DNA from: Rhabditophanes sp. KR3021
Taxonomy: Eukaryota > Nematoda > Chromadorea > Rhabditida > Alloionematidae
Direction of reading: 5' to 3'
DNA: 64,000 bases
Assembly: GCA_963281155.1 (NCBI GenBank)
Contig: CAUJLY010000004.1
Span: 372,001 to 436,000 of the forward strand
Numbering within the stretch: the first letter of the stretch is position 1; every line of letters begins with the position of its first letter. Both the position numbers and the translations under genes were made by a program. The notes beneath the pieces were generated by a model, which did no database searches, was not told where the DNA came from, and saw nothing but the letters and a program-made list of their open reading frames with translations. Below are positions 17,854-38,694 of the stretch, piece by piece.

Positions 17854-20800
17854 TTACAAGATAATTGCATTTTTATATGTTTCTCGGAGGATATTCTTTT
17901 GGATTTTACCCATTGTGTTGCGGGGCAGAGCATCCAAGAAGATTACTTTTTTGGGTACTTTGTAAGTGGCAAGGACATCTTTGCAATTTTTAATTATTTG
18001 ATGTTGATTCATTGCCTTGGTGGCCACAACCACAGCTAGGACAGCTTCTCCCAAATCTGGGTCCGGCACAGAGATAACAGCGCATTCGAGGACATTTTTG
18101 ATGTTCTCGATCACATCTTCTACTTCTTTTGGGTAGACATTCAAACCACCACTGATGATTAAATCCTTATTTCTGCCCATTATTTGCAAATATCCATTTT
18201 CGTCCAATCTTCCCGTGTCTCCAGTTATAAAGAAACCGTCCTCCGTAAATTCCTCCTTTGTTTTGAGGGGATTCTTCCAATACCCACCAAACATAGCATT
18301 ACTCCTAACCTCGACAACCTTATCCTTATTAATTCTAAGTTGAACTCCATCAACTGCCCGTCCAACTGTGCCACCAACTCTCTTCCCCTCAACCGGATTA
18401 GAAGCAATAACCATAGCTAAAAAGAAAAACGTAATCTAAAAGACAAATCATTCCTAACATGCCCTCACATCTGACAGCCCTAACCTTTACCATTCATCAC
18501 CAACCTACTGACACAACTAATTAGGCATATTATGGCGTTTAATTTAATTAGATGCATGGCCATACATTATATGTGGCAAATAAATAAAATATTTAATTAC
18601 TTACTTTCTGTCATTCCATAACGTTCCAAAATTTGCTTGCCTGTTTTGAGGTGGTGGAGGGTAGATTATTAAAAATAGTGGCATTTGATTTGGGATGTGT
18701 TTTTATTTTTAAGTGGTTCAATTTGAAGGGATGTTTTTGGAAGAAAGGTCTTCCGTGGGTGGGATGGCATTAGGTATTTTTTGATTTGAAGTTAAAAGAT
18801 CCAAACAAAAGCCAATGCCAGTCATGAAGAAAAGCCTAAAAAAGCCCAACTCGCATCTCACACTAACTCTACCAAAATCACAATCATCCCTCAAGATAGC
18901 AAAACTTAAAGAAGTATCAAAAAATGAACTTATTTAATCAACTTTAGATGATGACACCCTCTTAAGCCACCAATTGGCAAGACTGTCAACCAAATAATAT
19001 AAAGTCATTAATCTTCGTGGAGAATATGGGCTAGCTGTAGAAGGAAAGGTATCTTCAATTATTAAATAAGCATGCTGTTCCCAAGAAAACTAAATTTCGA
19101 AATAAGAAGGCTGGTGAGTTTGGTGATTGATTTGTGGAAAACATTGACCAAATTGGTTTTAGAAGGGCTTTTATGGGACATTAGTTATGATGGATCACCA
19201 TAAATTGCTTTCATCATTTACATGAGAGCAATGTTGTGGCGAAGAGAGGTGGAGGGAATTATGGATTGTGAAGCCTAGACAGCTTCTTGGTTTAATTATC
19301 AAATAGAATGAAGGTCAGGAGTTTTGAGTTGTGGTGAATAATAAAGCATCGGAATTCGATGGACTTATCATGATAAAGGAAGTGGCGAAGTCGAAATGAA
19401 CCGGCTTACTTCACAAAACAACCTTGATACTATATTTTGACCTAGAAGTGAGGAAATACTCGGTTTGGCAGAATGTCTGAGGATTACAATAGTTGTTGGT
19501 GGTGGGTATTTTGTCTTTGATTGGGGGATTGGTGTGTGCGGAAGAAACTAAAAATGGGCTTAGAAAGTTTGCTTAGGATTGCCCTCCCACTATTAAATGT
19601 ACCAGGAGAAGGTCGATGGCCAAGGTGGTGAACGAATTTAGATTCAATGATGATTAGTATTTTTGATCAGTCTACGCTAATTTACCTAAGTCTGAGTACA
19701 TTGCCGCTTCTGTGGTACAGACTCATTTTCCAAAGATGGTGAGAGGAATGGAGTGTGGAAGAGGATGCGAGTTGAAGTAGAAAAGGTGGAGACGGTGCGT
19801 GCTGGAAGAGATAGCAAGAACCGGAGAGTCAAATTAAGTGGTGTATTTAAGACATTCCGACATTGTCAAGAGAATCAGTGATTTCGGCATTAAACAACTT
19901 TTTAATCAAATTTCTTGTAATGTCTTTCTCATTTTTGGATAATAAACGTGTGTTGTTTAATTTACCTAAAATAAAATATGAGTTGCATAAAAAGAAATGA
20001 GACAATTGCCTGTTTTGAGGTAGAATTTATCCCAGACAGCAGAAGTCAAGGGAGCAGAACCACTGATGAAGAGGCGGATATTTTGATATGCTGAGGGTTT
20101 GAAATCCTTTGAATCAAGTAGACGGGAATAAAAGGTTGGGACACCTGACATGACACTTGCTTTGTTCATATATTTGATAGCTTTTGGTAGGTCGAATTTA
20201 GGTAGCCAGATAGCTGAAGATTGGGAAAAGAGACAACAGCTGAGTGACAGAAACATCCCATGAACATGATAAAATGGTAATGCGTGAAGTAAGACGTCAC
20301 GCGATCTAAATTGCCACAGAGATGTCAGACATTCACCTCCTTTGGTTAAGGCACCATGTGTGATCATGGCTCCCTTAGGAAGGCCAGTGGTTCCGCTTGT
20401 GTAGCAGATTGAGGCTATATCGGTCGGGGACACTGGTTCAATTGAGAAGTCGGGGGTTGTGTTGAGAGCTTCTGTTTTGAGGGTAGATTCACTGAGAATA
20501 TGAGTGATTTTGGGGAGAAATTGAATGTCCTTGTGGTGTGCAAGTGTTATGAATGCTTTAGGTTGGACATCATCAACGTAGTGATTTGTTTCTGTGGGTG
20601 TGTATGCGGGATTGACTGGCACGTAAATGGCTCCCAACCTCAAAACAGCCAAATACAAAGCTACACTATCCTCAGACTTGGTGACTCTAGCCAAGACACG
20701 GTCTCCTTTGTGGATTGCGTACTTACTATTTAACAAAGAAGCATACCTCCCTGACAACGTATCTATATCTCCATAACTCTTAACAGATTTATTCTCCAGA

Positions 20801-20889
20801 TACAACAAAGCATTCTTGGCATGGGCGGGATGAGCAAAATTAGTAGTGCTTACGAAATTAGAATTGCATCTCCTAAAAAAGATACTCAT
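17854..20889 (-). CDS. Malonyl-CoA synthetase (MatB/ACSF3 type), split by an inserted intron
   Basis: Exons 20889..20010, 18640..18605 and 18416..17854 sum to 1,479 nt, a 492-residue enzyme of normal length. It is an AMP-forming acyl-CoA synthetase: Tyr-Thr-Ser-Gly-Thr-Thr-Gly at residues 163-169, Gly-Ser-Ala-Pro-Leu, Glu-Arg-Tyr-Gly-Met-Thr-Glu, Gly-Asp-Thr-Gly, and the C-terminal Pro-Arg-Asn-Thr-Met-Gly-Lys-Ile-Gln-Lys-Asn with the catalytic lysine. The wording of these motifs follows bacterial MatB closely; ACSF3 is the usual animal counterpart. It makes malonyl-CoA from malonate for mitochondrial fatty-acid synthesis and protein malonylation. The N-terminus (MSIFFRRCNSNFVSTT) looks like a mitochondrial presequence. 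A 3' splice site ends 4 nt before the ATG. The 1,369-nt first intron has GC-AG ends and lies between direct repeats; if it is not spliced, translation stops soon after residue 294. Confidence 0.85.
18637..20021. mobile_element. 1.37-kb insert with 16-bp direct repeats inside the malonyl-CoA synthetase gene
   Basis: TTGCCTGTTTTGAGGT occurs at 18637-18652 and again at 20006-20021. Removing one copy plus the sequence between (1,369 bp) rebuilds an uninterrupted exon coding Leu-Lys-Thr-Gly-Lys-Gln-Ile-Leu-Glu-Arg-Tyr-Gly, the family sequence. The 16-bp repeat is therefore a target-site duplication or an equivalent duplication from the insertion. The insert has many stops in all frames, no obvious terminal inverted repeats, and no recognisable transposase. 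An A-rich stretch near 19970-20000 could be a decayed tail. It may be a non-autonomous element or a retrocopy. Confidence 0.75.
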
Positions 20890-37783: not shown

Positions 37784-38694
37784 TTAGCGGAAACAAGTGG
37801 CATGTCTTCCACCATCGACAGGTACAGTTGAACCAGTGATAAAACTGGCAGCCGATGAAGACAAGAAGGCAATTGTGTTGGCAACTTCGGTCGTTTCTCC
37901 AGCTCTGCCTAGGGGGTGGGTAGATTGGGAGTGGATTAGGAAAGCTTTGTAAGCTTCCTCGTCCATGCCTCCTGTCTTGTGGATGTTTGTGACGGTGACT
38001 CCTACAAAAAATAAAGTTAAGATAAAGAAACAAAAAAAGAGGTTGCCTGGATTGACGCTGTTGACTCTAACATTGTATGGAGCCAATTCAAGGGCACTGC
38101 ATCTAGTAAACTGATCCAACCCAGCTTTTGAGATGTTGTAAGCAAGTACTCCAGGAAACTAAAAGAACATTAATCGCAACAAATAACTACTTACTGATCT
38201 CATTCCATTGACACTTGACACATTCACAACATTTCCCTGGCTTAGCTTAAGCATCGGAGTTGCCAATTGAGTGAGGTAGAAGATGGCCCTGAGATTAACA
38301 TTCATCACATAGTCATAGTCTTCTAGAGTCTGAGTCTCCACAGTCCCTTTCTTGAGAAGGCCTGCATTGTTGACTAGGATGTCTAGCTTGTTGTATTTGG
38401 CTTGAACCGACTGAATCAATTTACGACAATCAGCTTCACTGGCCAAATCAGCACTCAAGGCATTGATCTGTTGCCCATCAACAGGCTCAGCAGTCAACTC
38501 AGTCTGCAAAGCAGCCAGCCTCTCCTCGTTTCTGCCGGTCAAAAAAAGCGTTGCTCCCAACTTCTTAAAAAGAATAGCTGTTTCTCTGCCAATGCCCTGC
38601 AACTTTACTTGTCAATAAAAGCAAACAAACTTACCGAAGTACATCCGGTAATCAAGGCAACCTTGCCACTCAAACTAATAATAGGAGATGACAT
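37784..38694 (-). CDS. Short-chain dehydrogenase/reductase
   Basis: Four exons: 38694..38635, 38596..38195, 38158..38047, 38001..37784; 263 residues, the usual classical SDR size. The Rossmann motif is Thr-Gly-Cys-Thr-Ser-Gly-Ile-Gly at residues 16-23; Asn-Asn-Ala-Gly and Asn-Val-Ser-Ser follow, with catalytic Tyr-Asn-Ile-Ser-Lys. A conserved Asn-Ser-Val-Asn-Pro-Gly and a C-terminal Val-Asp-Gly-Gly are also present. NAD(P)-dependent; the substrate cannot be read from the sequence. The last intron (38046-38002, 45 nt) uses a GC donor (CCAG|GCAACC), which keeps the frame through Asn-Pro-Gly-Val-Thr-Val; no GT alternative fits. Confidence 0.9.

What the first reader, a model, noticed from the sequence alone, without database searches (positions are those of the whole stretch)
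18637..20021. Insertion with a 16-bp target duplication that supplies both splice sites of a GC-AG intron
Seen: TTGCCTGTTTTGAGGT is repeated exactly at both ends of a 1,369-bp block inside an otherwise continuous malonyl-CoA synthetase exon. On the coding strand each repeat copy contains CAG|GCAA. Using the upstream copy as a GC donor and the downstream copy as the AG acceptor removes exactly the insert, restores Leu-Lys-Thr-Gly-Lys-Gln-Ile-Leu-Glu-Arg-Tyr-Gly, and gives a 1,479-nt frame divisible by three. A GC donor of the same kind is needed in the SDR gene at 38047, so this genome appears to tolerate them. Inference: an insertion duplicated a proto-splice site and was converted into an intron at birth, as proposed for introners. 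The alternative is a recent disabling insertion.
Basis: partly seen in the sequence, partly recalled or inferred. Interest (0 to 1): 0.8.

Follow-up and report, generated by a model that had tools for sequence, protein, structure and literature searches.

The report
Mobile DNA that becomes new introns
A stretch of mobile DNA sits inside a roundworm metabolic gene in a way that should let the cell splice it out as an intron; relatives of it lie at over a hundred places in the same genome, those examined closely lie as whole introns of other genes, and some carry what looks like a gene for a DNA-cutting enzyme.

Summary
In the own genome (Rhabditophanes diutinus KR3021, a free-living nematode) relatives lie at about 123 loci or more. 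In 21 hand-curated copies the element fills an intron antisense to the host gene; the donor lies 35-43 nt before the conserved tail in 16 and at its edge in 5. In 9 of 19 spliced host peptides other than the window's a Pfam domain crosses the junction above cut-off; so does AMP-binding here. A second copy keeps an exact 16-nt duplication. Longer members carry an ORF under purifying selection, zinc finger plus LEM-3-like GIY-YIG region (weak Pfam support); the window copy has lost that part. The introner survey I read gives family medians of 30-654 nt; nuclease-bearing spliceosomal introns were reported in mirusviruses. This looks like a nuclease-encoding introner family in an animal, nearly absent from the largest contig, perhaps the X. 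No RNA was available: splicing at this GC donor is inferred.

The parts
20010..20889 (-). Exon 1 of the malonyl-CoA synthetase-like (AMP-binding) gene, up to the GC donor
   Evidence: ORF and splice scan; AMP-binding covers residues 25-347, junction at about residue 294
20006..20021 (-). Upstream target-site copy ACCTCAAAACAG|GCAA; its GC (20009-20008) is the proposed donor
18653..20005 (+). Inserted element (1353 nt), on the strand opposite to the gene; degenerate, internally deleted member of the family
   Evidence: 43 matches besides itself in the own genome, 66-79% identical; stops in all six frames
18686..18929 (+). Element 5' (head) region; 29 other head matches in the fetched regions
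   Evidence: nhmmer 142 bits
18944..19015 (+). Remnant of the N-terminal part of the element's protein
   Evidence: tblastn 54% over 24 aa, E 2.8e-4
19826..19927 (+). Remnant of the C-terminal end of the element's protein; no match to the zinc finger and nuclease core was found in the window
   Evidence: tblastn 47% over 34 aa, E 6.7e-5
19826..19971 (+). Element 3' (tail) region; holds AATAAA at 19941-19946
   Evidence: nhmmer 101 bits; sequence
19960..19971 (-). TTTTAG|GTAAAT: joined acceptor-like and donor-like motif 38 nt inside the intron, seen by eye in many copies
18637..18652 (-). Downstream target-site copy; its AG (18642-18641) is the proposed acceptor
18605..18640 (-). Rest of the interrupted exon, (Gly)LysGlnIleLeuGluArgTyrGlyMetThrGlu
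18417..18604 (-). GT-AG intron (188 nt) of the same gene
   Evidence: read from the sequence; the joined codon is Thr, as in the Parastrongyloides protein
17854..18416 (-). Last exon

Best explanation
The insert is a non-autonomous member of an introner family of R. diutinus. A copy that lacks the nuclease region inserted into an exon of the AMP-binding gene, antisense to it, and duplicated 16 bp that contained AG|GC. The upstream duplicate serves as a GC donor and the downstream one as the AG acceptor, so the whole unit is removed as a 1369-nt intron and the protein is unchanged. Longer members carry, on the strand opposite to the host gene, an ORF with a zinc finger and a LEM-3-like GIY-YIG region; that protein is the likeliest source of the break at the target. 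Shown: the repeats, the family, the agreement of element ends with splice sites in the curated copies, the antisense orientation where Pfam could judge it, purifying selection on the ORF. Inferred: splicing of this copy, nuclease activity, and the nuclease as the motor.
For: Genome hits, about 123 loci after merging. In 21 curated copies (window included) the donor lies 35-43 nt before the tail match in 16 and within 5 nt of its edge in 5; the acceptor lies 11-106 nt (18 of 21 within 70) beyond the head match. Of 19 spliced peptides other than the window's, 9 have a Pfam domain above cut-off crossing the junction (Lectin_C, E1-E2_ATPase, Lipase_GDSL, Pkinase, GDP_Man_Dehyd, Hydrolase, Xan_ur_permease, TSP_1, Mod_r), plus AMP-binding in the window. 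Flanking ORFs at 10 of the 22 other tails: Pfam hits in 9 of 10 antisense, 0 of 10 sense. In-register likeness of the two exon/intron edges exceeds re-paired edges over 20 copies: p 0.001, and 0.018 without the window. C3:4620200 has an exact 16-nt repeat at its two edges. LEM-3_GIY-YIG above cut-off in L060 and precomputed for two of five public relatives. dN/dS 0.22-0.47 in the 15 of 28 pairs with computable dS.
Against: No transcript data. The donor GCAATT and acceptor AAAACAG are weak by nematode standards (recalled). A real pair of edges ranks first among re-pairings in only 4 of 20 copies. No relative is above 79% (79% over 78 nt; best by score 73% over 186 nt), odd for a recent insertion. 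Of 19 spliced peptides, 6 had no Pfam hit, 2 had hits that stop before the junction and 2 had crossing hits below cut-off. P0007, the 307-aa protein that the window encodes, ends about 40 nt inside the insert; if it is a public gene model, annotators did not see this intron. The GIY-YIG assignment is above cut-off in 1 of 7 family ORFs scanned for it, absent from 10 further ORF pieces, the AlphaFold model is poor (pLDDT 52), and neither Foldseek nor the PDB sequence search gave a GIY-YIG nuclease.
Confidence: 0.8

Rival explanations
1. The insertion is recent and disabling (or present on one haplotype): it is a member of the family, but this copy is not spliced well enough to make the enzyme.
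For: Weak GC donor and acceptor (recalled yardstick); perfect target duplication; the 307-aa protein P0007 ends about 40 nt inside the insert.
Against: The rest of the ORF is intact; sister copies with the same layout are introns in conserved genes; a GC donor seems to be used in the neighbouring SDR gene.
Confidence: 0.13
2. The family is an ordinary transposon that tends to land inside introns that already existed.
For: In C4:2891500-2897200 two copies lie side by side in what looks like one intron.
Against: The donor keeps a fixed distance from the element tail in all 21 curated copies (35-43 nt or -5 to -2 nt); residual duplications lie in register with the splice sites.
Confidence: 0.05
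3. Splicing is two-step: the first 44 nt (GC ... TTTTAG, 20009-19966) leave first, which creates CAG|GTAAAT, and this stronger donor is then joined to the acceptor (recursive splicing). Not exclusive of the best explanation.
For: In 16 of 21 curated copies the tail with this motif starts 35-43 nt inside the intron, and in 5 its edge is itself the donor. TTTTAGGTAAATTNAACAAA with up to 1 mismatch occurs 22 times, the reversed control pattern once. Mean information 1.60 bits against 1.25 for the rest of the tail.
Against: Another 11-nt stretch of the tail reaches 1.52 bits, so the conservation is not outstanding. About 44 nt is short for an intron, though the neighbouring SDR intron seems to be 45 nt.
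Confidence: 0.15
4. The repeat is an assembly artefact.
For: None found.
Against: The published assembly is long-read plus Hi-C (PMC10676810, abstract) and the insert belongs to a family with consistent structure.
Confidence: 0.01

Closest known systems
Introners (Gozashti et al. 2022, PMC9860276; abstract, sections 7 and 8 and search passages seen)
   Same: Dispersed similar introns in different genes; splice sites partly or wholly taken from the target duplication in some families; rare GC donors tolerated (0-50% per family).
   Different: There: family median length 30-654 nt, described as evolved from non-autonomous elements, 3-9 bp duplications in previously characterised families, 7 of 8 groups aquatic. 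Here: introns of 421-2191 nt in the curated set, an ORF under selection antisense to the host gene in longer copies, 16-nt duplication, a nematode kept on plates with bacteria. 'nematod' occurs 0 times in that paper's main text.
Spliceosomal homing introns, shintrons (mirusviruses, PMC12768974; passages seen)
   Same: Spliceosomal introns that carry GIY-YIG (and other) nuclease genes; that paper says the association had not been observed until then.
   Different: There: viral genomes, preferred target genes, proposed homing into intron-free copies. Here: an animal genome, about 123 loci, many unrelated genes.
Penelope-like retroelements (recalled, not looked up)
   Same: GIY-YIG endonuclease; duplications of variable length (recalled).
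   Different: No reverse transcriptase hit in the ORFs scanned.
LEM-3/ANKLE1 nucleases (Pfam PF22945; ANKLE1 kinship recalled)
   Same: Best Pfam match of the element's nuclease-like region.
   Different: Weak match; a zinc finger precedes it; dispersed and intronic.

Membership tests
Introner | Several introns of one genome alike in sequence, with likeness ending near the exon edges | tested here: met
   21 curated copies; curated by hand, antisense arrangement assumed in the search
Introner | Host genes unrelated to each other (not paralogous introns) | tested here: met
   different Pfam families at the loci with hits (kinase domains occur twice); one duplicated pair (C3:7496500, C2:6824800) counted once in the tests
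Introner | Insertion into exons, with empty sites in relatives | not testable with these tools
   no genome of a relative is held; only protein alignment through the junction
Introner | Removed by splicing (RNA) | not testable with these tools
   no RNA data; only domain continuity
Introner with splice sites from a target duplication | Duplication at both edges that holds the splice sites | tested here: inconclusive
   window: exact 16 nt holding both sites; C3:4620200: exact 16 nt ending 3-4 nt before the sites; real pairs rank first in 4 of 20; group p 0.001, 0.018 without the window
Shintron | Spliceosomal intron encoding a homing-type nuclease | tested here: inconclusive
   LEM-3_GIY-YIG above cut-off in 1 of 7 family ORFs, just below in a second; precomputed for 2 of 5 public relatives; no hit in 10 further pieces; the window copy lacks the region
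Shintron | Homing into the same site of an intronless allele | not tested
   copies lie in many different genes, which argues against strict homing
Penelope-like element | Reverse transcriptase domain | tested here: not met
   no such Pfam hit in the 18 distinct element ORFs or pieces scanned; degenerate stretches between them were not read
Terminal-inverted-repeat transposon | Inverted repeats at both ends | tested here: not met
   none at the ends of the window insert at the search's minimum of 11 nt; other copies not searched

The most novel reading that the evidence does not exclude
An animal genome holds self-mobile spliceosomal introns: autonomous introners that encode, antisense to the host gene, a zinc-finger GIY-YIG nuclease which opens exons at AG|GY-bearing sites and leaves about 16-nt duplications that become both splice sites. 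Deleted derivatives such as the window copy are moved in trans, and the process spares the X-like chromosome, as expected if it needs chromatin open in the germline.
Probability: 0.45. Interest if true: 0.95.

Novelty: new variant of a known kind. Interest (0 to 1): 0.82.

Why it matters
How introns arise is an old open question, and nematodes are a puzzle in it: a survey of 104 nematodes reports no intron gain within the related family Strongyloididae (PMC9169325, passages seen). A culturable bacteria-feeding nematode with about a hundred introner loci, some with open ORFs, would allow intron birth to be watched and the moving enzyme to be tested. It would also carry nuclease-bearing spliceosomal introns from viruses into an animal genome.

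Tried and rejected
Processed pseudogene or SINE: rejected, no poly-A end was seen and relatives share a coding region and a tail. Ordinary transposon inside pre-existing introns: rejected as the main reading because the donor keeps a fixed distance from the element tail. Frame restoration as evidence: rejected, automatic. Fold of the nuclease ORF: model too poor; Foldseek best E 0.66 with no GIY-YIG entry among the 50 rows shown of 89; the PDB sequence search gave 2 weak rows, a DNA glycosylase/lyase and a zinc finger. Recursive splicing motif: conserved, but not clearly beyond the rest of the tail. GC donor of C2:6824800 as support: dropped, that copy looks like a decayed duplicate (frame breaks 26 codons after the junction). 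Reverse transcriptase: none in 10 further ORF pieces of the longest curated elements. Literature: the listings showed no paper on introners with GIY-YIG in nematodes; only open-licence PMC papers are held. A 2025 survey of introners by the same first author is recalled, not seen; it may list nematodes.

The automatic splice search often ranked the inner TTTTAG|GTAAAT donor or a wrong acceptor first; the 21 pairs were chosen by hand from context and only in the antisense arrangement, so they are curated, not blind. For C4:5571500 the script picked the wrong phase; the peptide scanned is the phase-1 reading. C4:4668300's 10-nt match may be partly element sequence, since other copies end in similar letters. 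The 10 of 22 loci were picked because their antisense ORF looked recognisable, which favours hits in the antisense set. The ORFs for dN/dS were picked for being open. The E-limited list was typed by hand, one entry per locus; its weakest members were not fetched.

Full report
What is there. The window is G000:C4:372001-436000 of a 44.8-Mb genome in six contigs. Contig sizes match the published R. diutinus KR3021 v.2 assembly (six scaffolds of 11.2, 9.3, 7.8, 7.5, 6.5 and 2.3 Mb; PMC10676810, section read), and ORFs of three loci (L061, L059, L062) agree with Rhabditophanes sp. KR3021 proteins P0001-P0003 over the stretches compared by eye. The gene is an AMP-binding enzyme (Pfam AMP-binding E 4e-64) whose best named relative is from Parastrongyloides, 62%. 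The 16-nt repeats are exact and at the stated places.

What the frame does and does not show. Any target duplication restores the frame when one unit is removed, so the 1479-nt reading is not evidence of splicing. About 7% of 16-mers in this exon carry AGGT or AGGC (65 of 914). Of 22 open in-frame options in the scan, only GC-AG leaves the length unchanged; one GT option adds two codons with a poor donor.

The family. A search with the insert gave 44 matches, itself included, the others 66-79% identical and mostly to its last 180 nt (40 of 44 candidates scored). Reading the flanks showed the key fact: on the opposite strand the element's 3' end lies at a 5' splice site, and for the copies then printed the 5' end lies at a 3' splice site. 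Profiles of tail and head found 45 tails and 30 heads in 43 fetched regions; two tails under 40 bits were left aside. Of the other 43 tails, 21 (window included) were given both splice sites by hand and 22 were looked at on the donor side only. In the 21, introns are 421-2191 nt, the donor is 35-43 nt before the tail match in 16 and 2-5 nt inside it in 5, and the acceptor is 11-106 nt beyond the head match, median 35.

Tests of the intron reading. For 19 curated copies other than the window (one duplicated locus left out) the joined host peptide was scanned with Pfam: in 9 a domain above cut-off crosses the junction; in 2 a sub-cut-off domain crosses it (7tm_1, IMP2_N); in 2 the domain stops short (DHHC above cut-off, acetyltransferase below); 6 have no hit. 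At 10 of the 22 other tails the antisense ORF had Pfam hits in 9 and the sense ORF in none; in three of them (CDC20-type WD40, AAA_2, dynein AAA_6) the match reaches to about the donor, while in C2:3829000 the hit lies in a neighbouring exon. Names such as ClpX, Gcn5 or ZDHHC are my reading by eye.

Target duplications. Local alignment of the two exon/intron edges, real pairs against re-paired edges, gave p 0.0003 over 20 copies and 0.0066 without the window, but only 4 of 20 real pairs rank first in their row. In register, p is 0.001, 0.018 without the window and 0.017 without both exact cases; summed matches are 97 at shift 0 against 60-85 at shifts of 1-4. The window and C3:4620200 each have an exact 16-nt repeat; C4:4668300 has 10 of 10 and C1:5341827 11 of 12. 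Most copies show none, as expected if they are old, but that is also what chance would leave.

The encoded protein. Longer copies hold an ORF with a C2H2-like finger followed by a region that Pfam assigns to LEM-3_GIY-YIG: 28.2 bits in L060 (cut-off 27), 26.9 in L061, 18.6 in L058, 16.1 in L053, no such hit in L059, L062 and L063, L062 having a sub-cut-off GIY-YIG match. Ten further pieces from the longest curated elements gave no GIY-YIG and no reverse transcriptase. In a ten-row alignment one Tyr, one Arg, one Ser and one Leu are invariant, and Tyr119/Gly121 nearly so, a pattern that fits GIY-YIG as I recall it. A protein search with one ORF listed 150 matches in the own genome, 150 of 231 candidates having been scored. 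In the public protein set the profile of seven ORFs found 5 proteins among 1516 candidates, all from Rhabditophanes sp. KR3021, two with precomputed PF22945. Nei-Gojobori dN/dS is 0.22-0.47 in the 15 of 28 pairs with computable dS; dS is high, so the values are rough. In the tail consensus the ORF end is followed by AATAAA, so the element may be its own transcription unit. The window copy keeps only N- and C-terminal remnants.

Copy number and place. Merging the hits and those with E below 1e-6 at 3 kb gives 123 loci: C1 19, C2 25, C3 40, C4 30, C5 8, C6 1. The searches score a limited number of candidates, so this is a lower bound for the strong members; the weakest protein hits were not checked one by one. 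C6 is 11.2 of 44.8 Mb. RRM domains, as a control for gene content, gave 17 of 122 matches (exon pieces, not genes) on C6 (counted). The paper says R. diutinus Chr6 is syntenic to the S. ratti X. That C6 is Chr6 is my inference from contig order and size; the same paper also speaks of a small sixth chromosome, so this is open.

Mechanism and limits. The best account is an introner whose target duplication supplies both splice sites, with a GC donor here. Splicing of this copy, exonic empty sites, nuclease activity and the nuclease as motor are inferred. The structure model was too poor to help.

Prior work. PMC9860276 (abstract, sections 7 and 8 and passages) describes introner families with median lengths of 30-654 nt, evolved from non-autonomous elements, with splice sites taken from duplications in some. 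PMC12768974 (passages) reports nuclease-bearing spliceosomal introns in mirusviruses and says this had not been observed. PMC9169325 (passages) treats nematode intron gain and loss; Rhabditophanes occurs 0 times in its main text. None of the listings showed a nematode introner family with a nuclease.

Noticed in passing
G000 contig C6 (11.2 Mb): Only 1 of 123 family loci lies on this quarter of the genome, against 17 of 122 RRM domain matches. The contig may be the X-like chromosome (inferred, open). Suggests that insertion or survival depends on germline expression.
   Followed up: partly
window about 38000-38060, minus strand: SDR gene with an apparent 45-nt intron CAG|GCAACC ... TTTGTAG; its length is divisible by three and it is open, so the frame alone would not reveal it, but the SDR motif (recalled) suggests it.
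   Followed up: partly
window 19960-19971 and many family tails: TTTTAG|GTAAAT, a back-to-back acceptor and donor; in 16 of 21 curated copies the tail bearing it starts 35-43 nt inside the intron, in 5 its edge is the donor itself. Could be a recursive splice site or the trace of intron capture by the element.
   Followed up: partly
L013 (G000:C4:2891500-2897200): Two family members lie head to tail in what looks like one intron.
   Followed up: no
L025 and L035 (C3:7496500, C2:6824800): Duplicated GDSL-lipase loci with the same introner; one has GTAAGT, the other GCAAGT and a frame that breaks 26 codons after the junction.
   Followed up: partly
P0001-P0005: Public proteins that match the element ORF bear names such as Kinesin motor domain-containing protein or 40S ribosomal protein S25; annotation of this genome near introners needs care.
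   Followed up: no
L059 and similar ORFs: Upstream of the zinc finger some copies have a stretch (ALGMEYCISYSNPEFAN...) that looks by eye like a second, degenerate GIY-YIG end; not tested.
   Followed up: no
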